The position numbers and the translations under genes are program-made. Positions 6,911 through 19,698 of a DNA stretch of 40,818 bases are shown here, piece by piece. The stretch is taken from the NCBI RefSeq assembly GCF_008107625.1, contig NZ_SDKK01000006.1:81148-121965 (forward strand), read 5' to 3'. The notes under the pieces are model-generated. The model saw only the letters and a program-made list of their open reading frames with translations, did no database searches and was not told where the DNA came from. Every line of letters begins with the position of its first letter. Within the stretch, counting starts at the first letter, position 1. Source of the stretch: Zoogloea oleivorans. Lineage in GTDB: Bacteria; Pseudomonadota; Gammaproteobacteria; Burkholderiales; Rhodocyclaceae.

Positions 6911-9327
6911 TCTCCTTCGCGGGGTGGCGTAACCACTTCCCGATTGCCATTGGTGCCCATGGACGAAACCAGTCCCGAGCGCTCCATTTGTTCGATCAGG
7001 CGAGCAGCCCGGTTGTAGCCGATGCGCAGATGCCGCTGAACCAGTGAAATCGATGGCCGACGGGTCTTGAGGACGATCTCGACGGCCTGATCGTAGAGCG
7101 GATCCGCTTCACTGCCCTCACCGCCGCCTTCGCCGCCACCGAGCAGGTCACCGCCCTCCTCCTCCGACGGCGCCAGGATGCCCTCGATGTAATCCGGCGC
7201 ACCAAGAGACTTGAGGTATTCGACCACCCGGTGCACTTCGTTGTCGGCCACGAAAGCGCCGTGCATGCGAATCGGCAGGCCAGTGCCCGGCGCCAGGTAG
7301 AGCATGTCGCCCATCCCCAGCAACGCCTCGGCGCCCATCTGGTCGAGAATGGTGCGGGAGTCGATCTTGCTGGACACCTGGAAGGCCATGCGGGTCGGGA
7401 TGTTGGCCTTGATAAGGCCGGTGATCACGTCCACGCTGGGGCGCTGGGTGGCGAGAATCAGATGGATACCGGCCGCCCGGGCCTTCTGGGCCAGACGGGC
7501 AATCAACTCCTCGATCTTCTTGCCGACCACCATCATCAGGTCGGCCAGCTCGTCGATGATCACCACGATGTAGGGCAGCTTGTCAAGGGGCTCGGGGCTT
7601 TCCGGGGTGATCGAAAACGGGTTGGTGAGCGGCGAGCCGGCCTTGGCAGCATCGGCAACGGCCTTGTTGTAGCCGGCCAGGTTGCGCACACCAAGGGAGG
7701 ACATCAGCTTGTAGCGCTTTTCCATCTCTGCCACACACCAGTTGAGCGCGTTGGCGGCATGCTTCATGTCAGTCACCACCGGCGCCAGCAGGTGCGGGAT
7801 ACCTTCGTAGATGGACAGTTCGAGCATCTTCGGATCGACGAGGATCAAACGCACGTCGCTCGGCTCGGACTTGTAGAGCAGCGACAGGATCATCGCGTTG
7901 ATGCCCACCGACTTGCCCGAACCGGTGGTACCGGCCACCAGCAGGTGCGGCGTCTTGGCGATGTCGGCGACCATCGGCTGACCACCGATGTCCTTGCCGA
8001 GCGCCACGGTCAGTGGCGACTGCATGTCGTGGTAGACCTTGGAACCGAGGATTTCCGACAGGCGCACGGTCTGGCGCTTGGGATTGGGCAATTCGAGGGC
8101 CATGCAAGCCTTGCCGGGCACCGTCTCGACGACACGGATACTCACCACCGAAAGCGCCCGGGCCAGATCCTTGACCAGATTGACCACCTGGCTACCCTTC
8201 ACGCCCACCGCCGGCTCGATCTCGAAACGGGTGATCACCGGGCCGGGATAGGCCGCCAGCACCTTCACCTCGACGCCAAAATCAGCCAGCTTGCGTTCGA
8301 TCACGCGGCACGTGAACTCCAGGGATTCGGGCGACGGCGGCTCCACATCATGGGAGGGAATATCAAGCAGCGACAGCGGTGGCAACGGGCCGCCGGAATG
8401 CTCCATCAGCGGGGGGGGCGCCGGCCTCGGCTTGGGCGGAGCCTGGGTGAACACCGGGGCGGGATGCGGCCTCTGCGGTGCCTCGGCGAACACCGGCTCC
8501 GAGCGCTCCTTCTGCACAGGCTCGACCTTGAGCACCTCGGCCTTGACCACCTCGGCCTTGACCACCTCGGCCTTGACCACCTCGGACATTGCCGGCTCGA
8601 TGCGTACCGGCTGAGATGGCGCGGCCTCTTCCTTCTTGCGCTGGACCTCGACCACGGCCTCACGCTTCTGGGCCACTTCCCGGCCAACGCGTCGATCCTG
8701 CCAGGTCTGGAAGCCGTTGGTCACAAACATCCACACCTTTTCGAGACCAGCCCCGAGGACCTCGGAAGCCTCGACCCAGCTGATCCCCGAGAACAGGCTC
8801 AACCCGCCGGCAATCAGGGCCAGCAGCAGCAGCGTGCCGCCTGTAAAACCCAGATACTGAAGCACCAGACCGCCCAGCTCGAGGCCGATGACACCGCCCG
8901 GCTCCAGCGGCAACGTCGCCTTCAGGGTGTGGAAGCGCATCGCCTCAAGGCTGCTGCTCGCCACCAGCACCACCAGAAAACCGAACAACACAACAAAGAA
9001 GGAGCGCCGATCGGCACCGAAGTGCATCTGCAGGCGACGAAAGCCGATCGCCAGCCCGAAGCCAAGGAAAACCACCCACCACCAGGCCGACAGACCGAAA
9101 AGATAGAACAGCAGATCCGACATCCAGGCGCCGAAACGCCCGCCCGGATTACTCACCCGCTCCACCTGCACCGCGTGGGACCAGCCCGGATCAGCCTTGG
9201 AGTAGCCGAACAGGATCATGGCAACATAAAGCGCCAGCACACCGAGGAGCAGCCAGCGGGCTTCCTGCAACAGGCTGGAGATCTTCTCCGGCAGGGGAAG
9301 TGGACGGGTGGAAGGACGATTGAGCAT
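6907..9327 (-). CDS. ftsK: DNA translocase FtsK
   Basis: FtsK anchors in the division septum and pumps chromosomal DNA so that XerCD can resolve dimers at dif. The 806-residue protein has four membrane helices within residues about 20-180 and a Pro/Lys/Glu-rich linker at about 215-330. The RecA-like motor follows, with Walker A GTTGSGKS at 466-473 and [12 protein letters not shown] as Walker B. The winged-helix gamma domain ([25 protein letters not shown]) ends the protein and reads KOPS sites. It is shorter than E. coli FtsK because the linker is short. The linker contains the tandem five-residue repeat listed at 8521-8580. The gene overlaps lolA by four bases. Confidence 0.97.
8521..8580 (-). 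repeat. Four 15-bp tandem repeats in the ftsK linker
   Basis: Three identical 15-bp units (ctcggccttgaccac, plus strand) at 8536-8580 and one diverged unit at 8521-8535 encode repeated VVKAE pentapeptides in the FtsK linker. The unit is a multiple of three, so copy-number change would keep the frame. Confidence 0.9.
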
Positions 9328-14745: not shown

Positions 14746-16929
14746 ATGCTCTCCCTGCGCGCCCTGCGCCGTCTCCTCCCCTGTTTCGCCTCTGCCCTGC
14801 TGAGCGGTACCGCGCTCGCCGACACCTACGAAGTCAAGCTCCCGCCGGAGCTGTCCACCGCACCGAAGATGTGCGACTACACCCCGTGCAAGGACGTCAT
14901 GCCCGGCGCCACCTCGTTTTCCGAGCGCCGCGGCCAGCCGCCCTTCGTCGAAGCCTACAAGGACGAAGCCGGACAGAAAAAGCTCCTCGGCTACGTCATG
15001 CTGTCCACCGACATCACTGACATTCCGGCCTACTCAGGCAAGCCGGTCGTCACACTGATCGGCATGGACACCACCGGCCACTTCACCGGCGTCAAGATCC
15101 TCAAGCACTCCGAACCCATCCTGCTGCTCGGCATCCCCGAAACTGCGCTGGTCAAGTTCAACAACCAGTACCTCGGCAAGTTCGTCGGCGACAACATCGA
15201 GATCGGCAAATCCCGCCCCGACGAGCACCTCATCGGCCTCGACGCCATCACCGGCGCCACCGTCACCGTCATCGCCCAGAACCAGGTGATGATGACCTCC
15301 GGCAACGAAGTCGCCCGGCAGGTCGGCATCCTCAAACCGGTGCATCGCCCGCAGGCCAGATTCATCGCCTCCACCGCCACCCCCAGCTGGGCCGATCTGG
15401 TGGAAGACGGCAGCGTCCAGCGCCTTGTCGTCAAGGCCGAAGAGGTTGGCCTCAAGAGCGACGGCCGCCCCTACATGGACTTGTGGTTCGGCTACCTCAA
15501 CGAGCCCGCCATCGGCCGGGCCATCCTGGGCAAGTATGCCTACGACGGCCTGATGAGCCGCCTGTTGCCCGGCGAACACGCCATCTTCATCGTCAAGACG
15601 GCCGGCATGGACTCCTTCAAGGGCTCCGGCTTCGTGCGCGGCGGCCTCTACGACCGGGTCCAGGTGCGCCAGGACAAGGACAGCTTCACCTTCCGCGACC
15701 TCGACTACGTGAACCTGTGGGGCGTGTCCGCCCCCGGCGCACCGGCCTTCGACGAATCGGCCATCTTCATCATCCGCGGCAAGAGCTTCTCGGCTGCCTA
15801 CCCCTGGAAGCTGGTCTTCCTCGGCAACAAGATCGACAAGGAAACCTCCGCCAAGACCTTCGCCAACTTCGACAAGGAATACTGGCTCGACGCCAAATAC
15901 CTCGAAGGCGGCCGCCCGCTCGTCATCAAGCCCGACCCCACCTGGCTCAAGGTGTGGAAGGAGCGCGCCGTCGAAATCGGCGCCTTCACCGTCTTCCTGC
16001 TGCTGATTTCGGCCGCCTACGCCAGCCGCGACAAGCTGGTACGCCGCTCCACCCACAAGAACAAGTGGCCGGTGAATGCCTTCAAATACACCGCCTGGGT
16101 GGTGTCCATCGGCTTCGTCGGCTTCACCGCCATGGCCCAGCCCTCCATCACCCAGGTGCTCACCTGGTTCCACTCCCTGCTCTTCCAGTGGAAGTGGGAG
16201 CTGTTCCTGTCCGATCCGCTGATCTTCGTCTTCTGGATCTTCATCATCGTCACGGTCTTCGTGTGGGGCCGCGGCTTCTTCTGCGGCTGGCTGTGCCCCT
16301 TCGGGTCCCTGTCGGAGCTGCTCTACAAGATCGGCCAGGCCGTCGGCCTCAAGCGCTTCCAGTTCCACCTGCCGCAAAAGCTGCACGACAAGCTCAAGTG
16401 GGTGAAATACGCCGTCTTCTTCGGCCTGCTGGCGGTGTCCTTCTTCAACATGGGCCTGGCCGAAAAGCTCGCTGAAGTCGAACCCTTCAAGACCACCTTC
16501 CTCGTCGGCATCATGAACCGCAGCTGGCCCTACAGCCTGTTCGCCGCCGGTTTGCTGGGCCTGTCGATCTTCACCGAGCGGCCCTTCTGCAAATACCTGT
16601 GCCCGCTGGGCGCCGCGCTGGCCATGCCGACCACCTTCCGCTGGTTCGGACTCAAGCGGAAGGACGAATGCACCTCGTGCAAGGCCTGCGCCAAGGGCTG
16701 CGGCTCGCTGGCCATCGACACCAAGGGCAACATCGACCAGCGTGAATGCATGCTGTGCCTCGACTGCATGGTTCTCTACTACGACGACCACGCCTGCCCG
16801 CCGCTGGCCCAGGAGCGCAAGCGCCGCACCAAGGCCGGCCAGCCCCTCACCCCGATCAATGGCAAGGGCTACTACATCCCGATCCACCCGGTTCCCGCCG
16901 ACAAGAAGCAGGAAGGTGCCGCAGCATGA
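14746..16929 (+). CDS. nosR: NosR, electron donor and regulator for N2O reduction
   Basis: NosR is a membrane flavo-iron-sulfur protein thought to feed quinol electrons to NosZ and needed for nos expression. The 727-residue protein has a signal peptide (cleavage near ALA, residue 25). A periplasmic FMN-binding domain follows, with the TGAT motif at 169-172, where Thr172 should carry covalent FMN. Membrane helices occupy about 405-620, with two CxxxCP motifs (FFCGWLCPFG and FCKYLCPLG). A cytoplasmic two-cluster ferredoxin region starts at Cys642 (CTSCKACAKGC, then CMLCLDC). The length fits the family. The start follows GGAG. Its stop overlaps the next ATG as ATGA. Confidence 0.96.
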   Translation: MLSLRALRRLLPCFASALLSGTALADTYEVKLPPELSTAPKMCDYTPCKDVMPGATSFSERRGQPPFVEAYKDEAGQKKLLGYVMLSTDITDIPAYSGKPVVTLIGMDTTGHFTGVKILKHSEPILLLGIPETALVKFNNQYLGKFVGDNIEIGKSRPDEHLIGLDAITGATVTVIAQNQVMMTSGNEVARQVGILKPVHRPQARFIASTATPSWADLVEDGSVQRLVVKAEEVGLKSDGRPYMDLWFGYLNEPAIGRAILGKYAYDGLMSRLLPGEHAIFIVKTAGMDSFKGSGFVRGGLYDRVQVRQDKDSFTFRDLDYVNLWGVSAPGAPAFDESAIFIIRGKSFSAAYPWKLVFLGNKIDKETSAKTFANFDKEYWLDAKYLEGGRPLVIKPDPTWLKVWKERAVEIGAFTVFLLLISAAYASRDKLVRRSTHKNKWPVNAFKYTAWVVSIGFVGFTAMAQPSITQVLTWFHSLLFQWKWELFLSDPLIFVFWIFIIVTVFVWGRGFFCGWLCPFGSLSELLYKIGQAVGLKRFQFHLPQKLHDKLKWVKYAVFFGLLAVSFFNMGLAEKLAEVEPFKTTFLVGIMNRSWPYSLFAAGLLGLSIFTERPFCKYLCPLGAALAMPTTFRWFGLKRKDECTSCKACAKGCGSLAIDTKGNIDQRECMLCLDCMVLYYDDHACPPLAQERKRRTKAGQPLTPINGKGYYIPIHPVPADKKQEGAAA

Positions 16930-17348
16930 CCATCGCCGACAAGACCGAACTCCGCCAGCCCGCTTACGGCAACGCCCACGGCCTCAAATGGTTGGCTGCC
17001 GAAGCCTGGGATCACCTGTGGCCGTGGGCCGGCCGCGGCCAGCCGGCGCGCAAGCTTATTCAGGGTGCAGGCTTTGCACTGGCCATCGCCGCCACGGTGG
17101 CGTGGGTGCTGGCCGCCATGGGCCGCCTCGAAGCCGGCGCCATCATCGGCTGGTGGTTTGGCTGGAGCGTGCTGGAAGTCTTCGTCCGCCTCGACGCCAA
17201 GCCCTACGTCAAGGAAGGCCCCTGGTGGGGCCACCTGTACCGCCGCGCGACGGTGATGGACATGATCTGCTACGTGAGCTTCAAGAATTTGCTCATCGGG
17301 GCTGTGTTGTTCATCGGCTTGAAGAGCATCGGCGCCCTGCAAGTATAG
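16926..17348 (+). CDS. Small membrane protein coupled to nosR, unknown function
   Basis: The 140-residue product begins at an ATG overlapping the nosR stop, so it is co-translated with nosR. It has three likely membrane segments, at about 45-65, 70-90 and 112-137, separated by an aromatic and charged loop (RLDAKPYVKEGPWWGHLYRR). I do not recognise a named family. Its coupling suggests it belongs to the NosR electron-transfer complex, but this is inference from position alone. A hairpin at 17358-17383 follows. Confidence 0.8.
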   Translation: MTIADKTELRQPAYGNAHGLKWLAAEAWDHLWPWAGRGQPARKLIQGAGFALAIAATVAWVLAAMGRLEAGAIIGWWFGWSVLEVFVRLDAKPYVKEGPWWGHLYRRATVMDMICYVSFKNLLIGAVLFIGLKSIGALQV

Positions 17349-17357
17349 AGGCGACGT

Positions 17358-17383
17358 GCAGGGGCAAACTCAGTCGCCCCTGC
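17358..17383. terminator. Terminator-like hairpin after the nosR operon
   Basis: Perfect 8-bp arms (gcaggggc and gcccctgc) enclose a 10-base loop. The following bases (aaatccttt) contain only a short T-run, so termination efficiency is uncertain. It separates the nos genes from the 21-bp array. Confidence 0.5.
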
Positions 17384-17391
17384 AAATCCTT

Positions 17392-17580
17392 TCCCGACTG
17401 GCCCAAAGCGTCTCACGATTAATCGGAACACACTTCCGACGGGTCGAAACACTTATCCAGACTATCGAAAGACCTTTCCGATAGCCCAGAACATTGTTCC
17501 GACGACGCTCAAGACAGTTCCGGACTATCGGAACGTTTATACGGCCAGTCGGAAGACAGTTCTGGCCGGTCACAAGACAT
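17392..17580. repeat. Nine-unit 21-bp palindromic tandem array
   Basis: Nine diverged units of exactly 21 bp, with no insertions or deletions, fill 189 bases. Units start at 17392, 17413, 17434, 17455, 17476, 17497, 17518, 17539 and 17560. The consensus is TTCCGACTAGTCGGAA followed by a spacer GACAG. The first 16 bases are a perfect palindrome. Unit positions 12, 15 and 16 are invariant (C, A, A), and positions 4 and 5 match in eight of nine. Twenty-one bp is two helical turns, so all palindromes face the same side of the DNA. On the minus strand the array is an open frame of heptapeptides (17585 to 17370, 71 codons), starting directly after the HicA-like stop. Whether it is read as protein or acts as DNA or RNA is unknown. 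Confidence 0.85.
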
Positions 17581-17585
17581 ATCAT

Positions 17586-17864
17586 TCAGCCCCGTTCTGC
17601 ATCGTAGGCCGACAAACTCACTCCCGCAGCCGCCAGACATTCCCGCAGGTGCTTCACTTCGGTCTTGAGAAACTCGTTGCCGTGATGCGGGTGATGCACG
17701 AAGAACTCGTGGCGGTTCAAAACAATGCGAAAGCGCGCCCCGTGGCTGGGATCGATGCTCGCGCCGAGGTGATTGAGCAGGGATTCGACCTCGCGCCACT
17801 GGATGTTGCTGCTGATGGGGTCGCGAAAGATCGCTTCGAGAACATTGCGGTGTTTGTGGCTCAT
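17586..17864 (-). CDS. HicA-like protein without HicB partner
   Basis: A 92-residue protein resembling the HicA-family mRNA interferase toxins of the longer type. It has an N-terminal MSHKHRNVLEAIF helix, then QWREVESLLNHLGA, a strand region FRIVLNRHEFFVHHPH and a final KTEVKHLRECLAAAGV helix. The usual Gly-Ser-His of HicA is replaced by GARF, so activity is uncertain. GGAGG stands 8 bases before the ATG. No hicB follows. Instead the stop is directly followed (TGAATG) by the open frame that runs through the 21-bp array. Toxin function is a family-level guess. Confidence 0.65.
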   Translation of the reverse strand: MSHKHRNVLEAIFRDPISSNIQWREVESLLNHLGASIDPSHGARFRIVLNRHEFFVHHPHHGNEFLKTEVKHLRECLAAAGVSLSAYDAERG

Positions 17865-18045
17865 GGCATGGTCCTCCCGTTGATTGTGCCGGTCATTCTT
17901 GCACCGGCAGGGCCGCCCGGGTATGCGCAAACGCAACATCCATCGAAACGATGTCACCCCCCACTTGACCGGAAAGCCCAAATATTCATAGGCCCGGCCT
18001 GCTGCGGTCGCTATCATGCGCGACTTCTCTGTGCATTCCCCACCC

Positions 18046-19698
18046 ATGATCACCCTCAAAAACGTCACCTTGCGCCGCGGCGCCAAGGTGCTGCTCGACA
18101 GCACGTCCGTCACCCTCAACCCCGGCGAAAAGGTTGGCCTGGTAGGCCGCAACGGCGCCGGCAAGTCCACCCTGTTCGGCCTGCTCAACGGCACGCTGCA
18201 TGAAGACGGCGGCGATTACTCGATCCCGACCCAGTGGCGCATGGCCCAGGTCGCCCAGGACATGCCCGAGACCGAGCAAAGCGCCACCGCCTTCGTGATC
18301 GAGGGCGACACCGTGCTGCTCGCCGCCCAGAACGAAGTCACCGCTTCCGAGGCCACCGACGACGGCATGCGCATGGCCCATGCCTACATGGACCTGCACG
18401 ACGCCGGCGCCCACGACGCCGAAGCCCGCGCCCAGGCCCTGATCCTCGGCCTCGGCTTCAAGGTGTCGGAACTCAACAACCCGGTGAACAGCTTCTCGGG
18501 CGGCTGGCGCATGCGCCTGCAACTGGCCCGCGCGCTGATGTGCCCGTCGGATCTGCTGCTCCTCGACGAGCCGACCAACCACTTGGACCTCGACGCCCTG
18601 GTGTGGCTGGAAGCCTGGCTCAAGCGCTACAACGGCACCCTCATCGTGATCAGTCACGACCGGGAATTCCTCGACGCCATCACCACTGTCACGCTGCACA
18701 TCGACAACGCCAAGCTGGTGCGCTATGGCGGCAACTACAGCAAGTTCGAGGACATGCGCGCCGAGCAGCTCGAATTGCAGCAGGCTGCCGTTTCGAAGCA
18801 GGCCGACAAGATCGCCCACCTGCAGAAGTTCATCGACCGCTTCAAGGCCAAGGCCAGCAAGGCCAAGCAGGCCCAGAGCCGGGTCAAGGCGCTCGAACGC
18901 ATGGAGAAGATCGCCCCGGTGCTCGCCGACGCCGACTTCACCTTCGAATTCCAGGAGCCCGCCAACCTGCCCAACCCCATGCTGGCCATGACGGACGTGA
19001 GCTTCGGCTACCCGCCCCTCGACGACGCCCCCGCCGGCACGCCGCCCACCGTCATCGTCAAGAACATCAACCGCTCGGTGCATGCCGGCCAGCGTCTGGG
19101 CATCCTGGGTGCCAACGGCCAGGGTAAATCGACGCTGGTGAAGACGGTGGCCCGCGCGCTGGCCCCGATCACCGGCGAGATCACCGAAGGCAAGGGTCTC
19201 AACATCGGCTACTTTGCCCAGCAGGAACTCGACGTGCTGCGTCCGCTGGACAACCCGATGGAGCACATGATCCGTCTGGCCAAGGACACCATCGCTGCCG
19301 GTGGCCGCGCCGTAGCCGGCCGCGAGCAGGACTTGCGCAGTTTCCTGGGCACCTTCAATTTCAGTGGCGAGATGGTCAAGCAGCCCGTGGGCACCATGAG
19401 CGGCGGCGAAAAGGCCCGGCTGGTGCTGTGCATGATCGTCTGGCAGCGCCCCAACCTGCTGCTGCTCGATGAGCCGACCAACCACCTGGACTTGGCCACC
19501 CGTGAAGCCCTCAGCGTGGCCCTCAACGAGTTCGAAGGCACCGTGATGCTGGTCAGCCACGACCGCGCCCTGCTGCGCGCCGTGTGCGACGAGTTCTGGC
19601 TGGTCACCCGCGGCGGCATCGAGCCCTTCGATGGCGACCTGGACGACTACCAGCGCTTCCTGCTGGCCGAAGCCAAGCGCTCCCGCGAGGCCGCCTGA
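18046..19698 (+). CDS. yheS: ABC-F family ATPase, YheS type
   Basis: ABC-F proteins have two ABC ATPase domains and no membrane part; they act on ribosomes in translation quality control or drug protection. The 550-residue protein starts at ATG 18046. Its first lines (MITLKNVTLRRGAKVLLDST) match the YheS pattern. Walker A is GRNGAGKST at 34-42 in domain 1 and GANGQGKST in domain 2. Signatures are FSGGWRMRLQLA and MSGGEKARLVL. Both Walker B motifs read LLLLDEPTNHLDL. The interdomain linker is Lys/Ala-rich (FKAKASKAKQAQSRVKALERMEKI). No clear Shine-Dalgarno is visible. It is convergent with the response regulator, meeting it at 19698/19699. Confidence 0.92.
   Translation: MITLKNVTLRRGAKVLLDSTSVTLNPGEKVGLVGRNGAGKSTLFGLLNGTLHEDGGDYSIPTQWRMAQVAQDMPETEQSATAFVIEGDTVLLAAQNEVTASEATDDGMRMAHAYMDLHDAGAHDAEARAQALILGLGFKVSELNNPVNSFSGGWRMRLQLARALMCPSDLLLLDEPTNHLDLDALVWLEAWLKRYNGTLIVISHDREFLDAITTVTLHIDNAKLVRYGGNYSKFEDMRAEQLELQQAAVSKQADKIAHLQKFIDRFKAKASKAKQAQSRVKALERMEKIAPVLADADFTFEFQEPANLPNPMLAMTDVSFGYPPLDDAPAGTPPTVIVKNINRSVHAGQRLGILGANGQGKSTLVKTVARALAPITGEITEGKGLNIGYFAQQELDVLRPLDNPMEHMIRLAKDTIAAGGRAVAGREQDLRSFLGTFNFSGEMVKQPVGTMSGGEKARLVLCMIVWQRPNLLLLDEPTNHLDLATREALSVALNEFEGTVMLVSHDRALLRAVCDEFWLVTRGGIEPFDGDLDDYQRFLLAEAKRSREAA

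What the first reader, a model, noticed from the sequence alone, without database searches (positions are those of the whole stretch)
17392..17580. Nine-unit array of 16-bp palindromes phased at exactly 21 bp
Nine diverged copies keep a strict 21-bp period without a single indel, although only a few positions are invariant (C12, A15, A16). The consensus is a perfect 16-bp palindrome plus a 5-bp spacer. Strong selection on spacing with loose sequence suggests either cooperative protein binding on one face of the helix (an operator or iteron-like array), or a heptapeptide-repeat protein, since 21 bp is seven codons and the minus strand is open across the array.
Basis: seen in the sequence. Interest (0 to 1): 0.8.

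Follow-up and report, generated by a model that had tools for sequence, protein, structure and literature searches.

The report
Zoogloea's 21-bp-grid palindrome arrays
The nine-copy repeat is real and belongs to a family of non-coding DNA arrays, scattered between genes in several Zoogloea species, whose mirror-symmetric units keep to a 21-base grid while their sequence changes; what they do is not yet known.

Summary
In detail: nine units of 16-bp palindrome plus 5-bp spacer at 17392-17580, period exactly 21, far beyond shuffles. Chance and a protein are not supported. The genome is a Zoogloea close to Z. oleivorans. Arrays on the same grid lie between genes in several Zoogloea species: five in 728 kb of this genome, four in 267 kb of Z. 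ramigera, on contigs chosen for known arrays (two known beforehand in each). None was accepted in 200 kb of another Zoogloea or about 1.15 Mb of other genera. Array sequences differ, the grid does not; orthologues differ by 126, 105 and 21 bp, with off-grid differences at edges. The real unit is a three-unit inverted repeat: units 1 and 3 are complementary and carry CGATAG(T) and its reverse complement 45 bp apart, unit 2 is self-palindromic, spacers do not pair. Paired positions change together. The design resembles BIMEs but lacks the GTAG tag, and several array-bearing genomes gave no Y1-transposase match. Most likely a DNA element working through phased dyads; 3'-end RNA hairpins or template switching remain open.

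The parts
17392..17580 (.). Array of nine 21-bp units (16-bp palindrome + 5-bp spacer)
17455..17470 (-). Type-3 unit ATCCAGACTATCGAAA, carrying ACTATCG
17476..17491 (+). Type-1 unit TTCCGATAGCCCAGAA, carrying CGATAG; unit 1 of the three-unit module
17497..17512 (.). Type-2 unit TTCCGACGACGCTCAA, middle of the module (self-pairing is weak in this copy)
17518..17533 (-). Type-3 unit TTCCGGACTATCGGAA, unit 3 of the module; 14 of 16 bases complementary to 17476-17491 (counted by eye)
17479..17530 (.). CGATAGC...ACTATCG inverted pair, starts 45 bp apart, the signature shared with other arrays and species
16926..17348 (+). Upstream gene, 140-aa protein next to nosR (nosR named from recollection); it ends 44 bp before the array
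17586..17864 (-). Convergent small gene, 92 aa (HicA-like by my recollection, not tested); a match in 23 of 23 Zoogloea genomes, weak (33% identity) in one of them; its 3' end lies 6 bp after the array as given (11 bp after the last palindrome)

Best explanation
The array is one copy of a non-coding, BIME-like repeat family of the genus Zoogloea. In the arrays that carry CGATAG, the building block is a 58-bp inverted repeat of three 16-bp units on a 21-bp grid: unit 1 and unit 3 are complementary and carry CGATAG(T) and its reverse complement 45 bp apart, unit 2 is its own palindrome, and the 5-bp spacers stay unpaired. Other arrays keep the grid and dyad symmetry without CGATAG. Blocks are tiled so that every symmetry axis falls on the same face of the helix (inferred from the 21-bp grid). 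Arrays gain and lose mostly whole units and diverge in sequence while keeping grid and symmetry. SHOWN: grid, symmetry, covariation, intergenic placement, spread over species, mostly whole-unit length changes. INFERRED: it works at the DNA level, as a row of equally oriented dyad sites (or cruciform-prone palindromes) mostly just downstream of genes, held by a dimeric DNA-binding protein not yet identified, with an insulating or transcript-ending role like that of E. coli BIMEs.
For: The period is exactly 21 in arrays of unlike sequence. Lag 21 is the commonest repeat lag in the 212 intergenic gaps of 728 kb of this genome and in 67 gaps of Z. ramigera, on contigs chosen because they held two known arrays each. 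Orthologue length differences are one gap of 126 bp at this locus and one of 105 bp in array F, and 21 + 21 bp in J. The C/I orthologue pair aligns over 203 bp without an indel at 87% identity. Inverted CGATAG/CTATCG pairs at the 45-bp spacing: 8 in this genome's stretches, 4 in Z. ramigera, 3 in the Z. oleivorans MAG, 1 elsewhere in Zoogloea (sets partly fetched for their arrays), 0 in 1.15 Mb of other genera; no other '><' spacing exceeds 2 in any set for this pair. In 19 distinct modules units 1 x 3 pair at 222 of 304 positions (expected 197), unit 2 with itself 96 of 152 (expected 74), spacers 34 of 95 (expected 36). In nine J-family copies 15 of 72 pairs show double changes against 8.3 in shuffles and 0-4 when slid; by mirror class, 0.21 of double-changed pairs stay complementary on the dyad class against at most 0.15 on the other 20. 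No sense-strand G-U excess over 12 arrays (GT 381, AC 536; expected 400, 539), which favours DNA over sense RNA.
Against: No binding protein is known and none was tested. One genome holds at least four array flavours, which one sequence-specific protein would hardly bind. AT content has periods 21 and 7; 10.5 stands out in only 6 of 19 arrays, so there is no general bending or gyrase-type signature. Within single arrays, symmetry inside units does not exceed what column composition gives (mean z -0.2 over 15 arrays). In orthologue pairs compensating changes are few (2 of 6 double-changed pairs in C/I, with another class reaching 3; 7 of 35 in D, equalled by another class). In the J family G-T exceeds A-C on the sense strand (45 against 17), which fits RNA. 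Not all length differences are whole units: 31 bp at the edge of D and gaps of 14, 13, 8 and 1 columns at edges or between paralogues in the J alignment. The surroundings of C/I may be non-homologous, so their failure to align does not by itself prove selection on the array. Adjacent units also covary (z 2.9 and 3.5), so the three-unit module is not the only symmetry.
Confidence: 0.45

Rival explanations
1. The arrays act as RNA: they are transcribed as 3' ends of the upstream genes and fold into rods (16-bp stem, 5x5 internal loop, inner hairpin) that stabilise the message or help end transcription.
For: Both strands of 17345-17590 (the array plus a flanking hairpin) fold better than shuffles (z -4.6 and -6.1). 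J-family helices covary, with G-T 45 against A-C 17 on the sense strand. Of ten tandem-gene cases, seven arrays lie nearer the upstream stop than the downstream start.
Against: Over 12 arrays oriented to the upstream gene there is no G-T excess (381 against 536 A-C). Paired units of arrays A and B have A-C mismatches and no G-T in that sense, though one pair in array G has two G-T. RNA gives no reason for an exact 21-bp grid. No Rfam family fits.
Confidence: 0.25
2. No present function: palindromic satellite DNA kept symmetric by replication template switching (which copies one arm onto the other) and lengthened by unequal exchange of whole units.
For: Superperiods of 2, 3, 4 or 6 units show block duplication. 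Adjacent arms can be perfect complements (C and I units 5/6). Template switching can make compensating changes (PMC8794818, abstract read).
Against: Does not explain the same 21-bp period and the same 45-bp CGATAG spacing in arrays of unlike sequence and in different species, nor a 203-bp array staying indel-free at 87% identity between species.
Confidence: 0.18
3. REP/BIME proper: palindromes mobilised by a RAYT-type (Y1) transposase.
For: Often alternating inverted orientation, extragenic, dispersed copies (J family), REP-like hairpins nearby. This genome, G018 and G012 each have one Y1_Tnp match. Clusters of short-stem GTAG-1 REPs are reported in Thauera MZ1T (PMC3733652, section 5 and passages).
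Against: No Y1_Tnp match in G009, G008, G004, G010, G007, G005 and G002, in which I describe arrays (completeness 100, 92, 98, 89, 82, 80, 77%), while G006 has four matches and no array in 200 kb. GTAG is not enriched in 19 arrays (19 against 22.7 expected; only D and R have several); CGTC neither (52 against 64).
Confidence: 0.08
4. Heptapeptide-repeat protein encoded on the minus strand.
For: Open minus frame across the array; more open frames than plain shuffles (19 against 3.4); orthologues C and I share an open minus frame.
Against: With the period kept, 20 against 14.1, and 6 of 19 arrays have no open frame. In the shared frame of C/I the 27 changes fall on codon positions 1, 2, 3 as 15, 6, 6 (my reading of the phases), not as synonymous drift would.
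Confidence: 0.02

Closest known systems
BIME / REP arrays (GTAG REPs, RAYT-associated)
   Same: Intergenic palindromic units, often alternating orientation, higher-order modules, species-specific sequences, mostly after genes
   Different: Exact 21-bp grid, unit sequence free to vary between arrays of one genome, no GTAG or CGTC enrichment, arrays present where no Y1 transposase was found
Thauera sp. MZ1T GTAG-1 clustered repeats (PMC3733652; section 5 and passages read, figures not held)
   Same: A betaproteobacterium related to Zoogloea (recalled), short (5-bp) stems, clusters found through a tandem-repeat database
   Different: Described as GTAG-tagged; spacing and sequence not seen by me, so identity is neither shown nor excluded
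Plasmid iterons / phased operator arrays (recalled)
   Same: Direct repeats about two helical turns apart
   Different: Several chromosomal arrays per genome, units palindromic and of many sequences; no plasmid match for two arrays

Membership tests
REP/BIME | Extragenic palindromic units in alternating orientation with regular spacing | tested here: met
   15 of 15 arrays intergenic by my gene calls; CGATAG orientation alternates in most but not all arrays that have it (D and several J copies do not)
REP/BIME | Terminal unpaired GTAG (or CGTC) tag | tested here: not met
   GTAG 19 against 22.7 expected, CGTC 52 against 64.2 expected over 19 arrays; GTAG absent from array A
REP/BIME | Cognate RAYT (Y1_Tnp) gene in the genome | tested here: not met
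   PF01797 in 9 of 23 Zoogloea; none in seven array-bearing genomes, of which G009 is 100% complete; present once in this genome
REP/BIME | High copy number, more than 100 per genome (PMC2817692, abstract) | tested here: inconclusive
   5 arrays per 728 kb and 4 per 267 kb on chosen contigs, with unlike sequences; whole genomes not counted
Operator or iteron array | Bound by a cognate dimeric protein | not testable with these tools
   No binding data
Structured RNA family | Match to a known Rfam model | tested here: not met
   (only weak microRNA- and snoRNA-type matches under their cut-offs in L083, none for window 17300-17640)
Structured RNA family | Covarying helices with G-U tolerance on the transcribed strand | tested here: inconclusive
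   Covariation met (structure derived from the same alignment); G-U bias absent overall, present in the J family
Protein-coding repeat | Open frame kept across family members | tested here: not met
   6 of 19 arrays have none

The most novel reading that the evidence does not exclude
A class of chromosomal element whose conserved quantity is geometry, not sequence: dyad axes on an exact two-turn grid, in many arrays with an inverted CGATAG pair 45 bp apart, read by an unknown protein that wraps or bridges DNA, with arrays free to drift in sequence as long as symmetry and phase are kept.
Probability: 0.25. Interest if true: 0.8.

Novelty: new variant of a known kind. Interest (0 to 1): 0.6.

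Why it matters
Repeats are normally recognised by sequence. These are easily missed that way because arrays differ in their letters: a DNA search of 39 relatives with this array found nothing, and Tandem Repeats Finder does not list it. If geometry is what is selected, they give a natural series for asking how phased symmetry in DNA acts on transcription or chromosome structure, in a genus of sewage flocs. They also suggest that symmetric repeats can keep their pairing over species without an apparent transposase.

Tried and rejected
Rejected: chance; coding; intrinsic terminator in the array (the one terminator-like site in 16900-18100, at 17864, is outside it and no more than shuffles give); known RNA families; plasmid relatives (no match for two arrays in 72,556 records); general DNA bending with 10.5-bp AT phasing. 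A motif scan with the full consensus was no better than its reversed control (24 against 35), because units diverge; a four-unit model (R1) worked far better. The first column-shuffle test found no within-unit covariation; only the comparison across flavours and species did.

Counts that need care. One search matched 15 of 23 Zoogloea (this one included) at E<=1, but many matches are weak; of 20 stretches fetched from those matches, lag 21 is the best lag at the array in 10 (L075, L077, L078, L082, L083, L084, L085, L089, L090, L093). In L079 and L080 lag 21 is best too, but elsewhere; the L079 array itself has lag-21 identity only 0.38. The contigs scanned had been picked because they held known arrays: two of the five and two of the four were known beforehand, so the densities are biased upward. 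True arrays are my reading of the listed rows: of 11 lag-21 hits at 0.42 or more, I accepted five and dropped six as coding-like, pyrimidine-rich, an 18-bp repeat, or weak (three of the dropped were never displayed). In one search, of five at 0.48 or more I dropped one 7-bp microsatellite; two weaker ones were not displayed. In the Thauera MAG I dropped two, one looking coding and one low-complexity; in G006 one run of G, and one weaker hit was not displayed. Among the non-Zoogloea loci five lag-21 hits reached 0.42 (best 0.456) and were not displayed. In one search the 23 loci that I sorted as Zoogloea (354 kb, 128 gaps, around the 92-aa gene) gave no lag-21 hit at 0.42; they include the three-unit array of G018, so the scan misses short arrays. 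The modules were chosen by their CGATAG core; without the five fixed positions units 1 x 3 pair at 127 of 209 (61%). With the overlapping 6-mer pair GATAGT/ACTATC the 45-bp spacing occurs 4, 1 and 2 times in three sets, and a 127-bp offset three times in Z. ramigera. Arrays were partly found with a model holding CGATAG, which inflates its enrichment. Orthologous and paralogous copies are not independent. On rechecking I changed three statements (7, not 8, of ten arrays nearer the upstream stop; 10, not 11, of 20 stretches; contigs not chosen blindly) and counted GTAG; my odds did not change.

Full report
What is there. The nine units at 17392-17580 are exactly as described. They sit in a convergent gap between a 140-aa gene next to nosR (it ends at 17348) and a 92-aa gene on the minus strand (from 17586), with an ABC-F-like gene beyond (nosR, ABC-F and HicA-like are names from recollection). 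The 92-aa gene has a match in all 23 genomes of the genus searched, weak in one, and named records identify the genus as Zoogloea, nearest Z. oleivorans (99% protein identity).

The locus in relatives. Of 12 relatives in which the gap between the two genes could be read, one (the Z. oleivorans MAG, G018) has the array, with three units instead of nine; the alignment has a single gap of 126 bp, six whole units. The other 11 have no array there. The array at this spot is therefore young or easily lost. A plain DNA search of 39 relatives with the array found nothing.

A family of arrays. A second array in the same genome shares the sequence (G000 C37). A sequence model of four units found more, and plotting them showed a common plan with different letters: TTCCGA..TCGGAA, ATCCGG..CCGGAT, TATC..GATA, GAAC..GTTC and others, always at 21 bp. 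I then scanned two whole contigs of this genome (728 kb) without using any motif. They had been picked because they held two known arrays. Among 212 intergenic gaps, lag 21 was the commonest repeat lag (11 hits at 0.42 or more; the next, lag 9, had 7), and five of the hits are arrays by eye, three of them new. In 267 kb of Z. ramigera, again on contigs with two known arrays, the same scan gave four arrays, two new. It gave no accepted array in 200 kb of another Zoogloea, G006, no lag-21 hit in 354 kb around the 92-aa gene in Zoogloea, and no accepted array in about 1.15 Mb of other genera of the same order or class (375 kb, 500 kb, 276 kb). All 15 arrays whose surroundings I worked out are between genes: ten between tandem genes, three convergent, two apparently divergent; in seven of the ten tandem cases the array is nearer the upstream stop than the downstream start (gene calls by my own codon model).

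Grid before sequence. Orthologous arrays differ mostly by whole units: 126 bp here and 105 bp in array F, 21 and 21 bp in array J. Exceptions: 31 bp at the edge of array D, and gaps of 14, 13, 8 and 1 columns at edges or between paralogues of J. Arrays C (this genome) and I (G018) align over 203 bp, about ten units, with no indel at 87% identity. The intergenic DNA around them aligns poorly, but part of it may be non-homologous, since the distances to the next matching stretch differ.

The true unit. Alignment showed unit types in order 2-3-1; types 1 and 3 are near reverse complements. Motif counting then showed that arrays of different sequence and species share CGATAG(T): 36 CGATAG/CTATCG sites against 1.2 expected, in 13 of 19 arrays (some arrays were found with a model that holds this motif). 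Its inverted pairs lie 45 bp apart in 16 of 23 neighbouring '><' pairs, and facing away at 18 or 39 bp in 7 of 11 '<>' pairs (30 arrays, orthologues and paralogues included); 45 + 18 = 63 and 45 + 39 = 84 are three and four units. In 995 kb of two species the exact 7-mer pair has this spacing three times and every other spacing up to 130 bp at most once. With the 6-mer CGATAG the counts are 8, 4, 3 and 1 in Zoogloea sets and 0 in 1.15 Mb of other genera. Arrays of Z. dura (H, K, Lx), N, and E and F4 of this genome lack the motif but keep the grid. In 19 distinct modules units 1 and 3 pair at 73% of positions (61% without the five positions fixed by the choice of modules), the middle unit with itself at 63%, units 1 and 3 with themselves at 34%, spacers at 36%; all but the spacers exceed their shuffles (z 4.5, 4.7, 3.7 and -0.5), and adjacent units do too (z 2.9, 3.5). 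The sides change together: at positions 5/58 C-G in eight modules, G-C in six. In nine copies of the Z. ramigera-type array 15 of 72 pairs have double changes, 8.3 in shuffles, 0 to 4 when slid (the structure was derived from the same alignment, which favours it). Within single arrays and single orthologue pairs the signal is weak or absent.

DNA or RNA. If sense RNA were selected, G-U should replace A-C on that strand. Over 12 arrays oriented to the upstream gene it does not (GT 381, AC 536; expected from column make-up 400 and 539). The J family leans the other way (45 to 17). I read this as a DNA-level constraint with RNA possible for some arrays. A general bending or gyrase-wrapping reading is not supported: AT content shows periods 21 and 7, and 10.5 in 6 of 19 arrays.

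How it most likely works. Symmetry axes on an exact two-turn grid face the same side of the helix (inference). The likeliest use is a row of sites for a dimeric protein, or palindromes ready to extrude, mostly just downstream of genes, as BIMEs do in E. coli (PMC2817692, passages read: gyrase, IHF and Rho-dependent termination). No protein is known. Template switching (PMC8794818, abstract) can create and repair such arms and probably contributes to how arrays change, but alone it does not explain one period and one 45-bp spacing in unlike arrays.

Known or new. It works like a BIME but fails two tests for REP membership: a GTAG or CGTC tag (neither enriched) and a cognate Y1 transposase (no match in seven array-bearing Zoogloea, four of them under 90% complete; one match in this genome). 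PMC3733652 (section 5 and passages read) reports clustered short-stem GTAG-1 repeats in Thauera MZ1T; I could not see the sequences, so a kinship is possible. Searches for a description of such arrays listed no title or abstract start that describes them; only open-licence papers are held, and beyond the three papers named nothing was opened.

Noticed in passing
L083 4285-4380: REP-like hairpin (GGTTACGCTGCGCTAACC type, GTAG-flanked) with dozens of near-identical matches in many Zoogloea genomes.
   Followed up: partly
L004 3664-3681; G000 C14:241157-241220; L133 gap: Other REP-like hairpins (GTCGGACTGAAGTCCGAC; GGGCGACTTCAGTCGCCC) lie directly beside 21-bp arrays.
   Followed up: no
G000 C14:339393 (L128, about 19393): Strong 18-bp (9/18/27/36) repeat with high palindromy in a predicted 567-bp convergent gap; a possible second kind of array or an unpredicted repeat gene.
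   Followed up: no
window 8521-8585: 15-bp tandem repeat, 4.3 copies, 96% match.
   Followed up: no
L087, L088, L091, L092: Model R1 matches with E 0.04-0.41 in other Zoogloea where lag 21 was not the leading lag; probably chance.
   Followed up: partly
G006 C7:182312: Run of about 100 G in a contig, probably an assembly artefact.
   Followed up: no
L083 4205-4285: The right end of array J (AAAAAACTATCGTCGACGGCG...) is duplicated about 53 bp apart and shared by paralogous copies, suggesting a defined element end.
   Followed up: no
L217 (G004 C111:140-391): An array 92% identical to that of Z. ramigera G009 in another Zoogloea genome, at a contig end: horizontal transfer or a stray contig.
   Followed up: no
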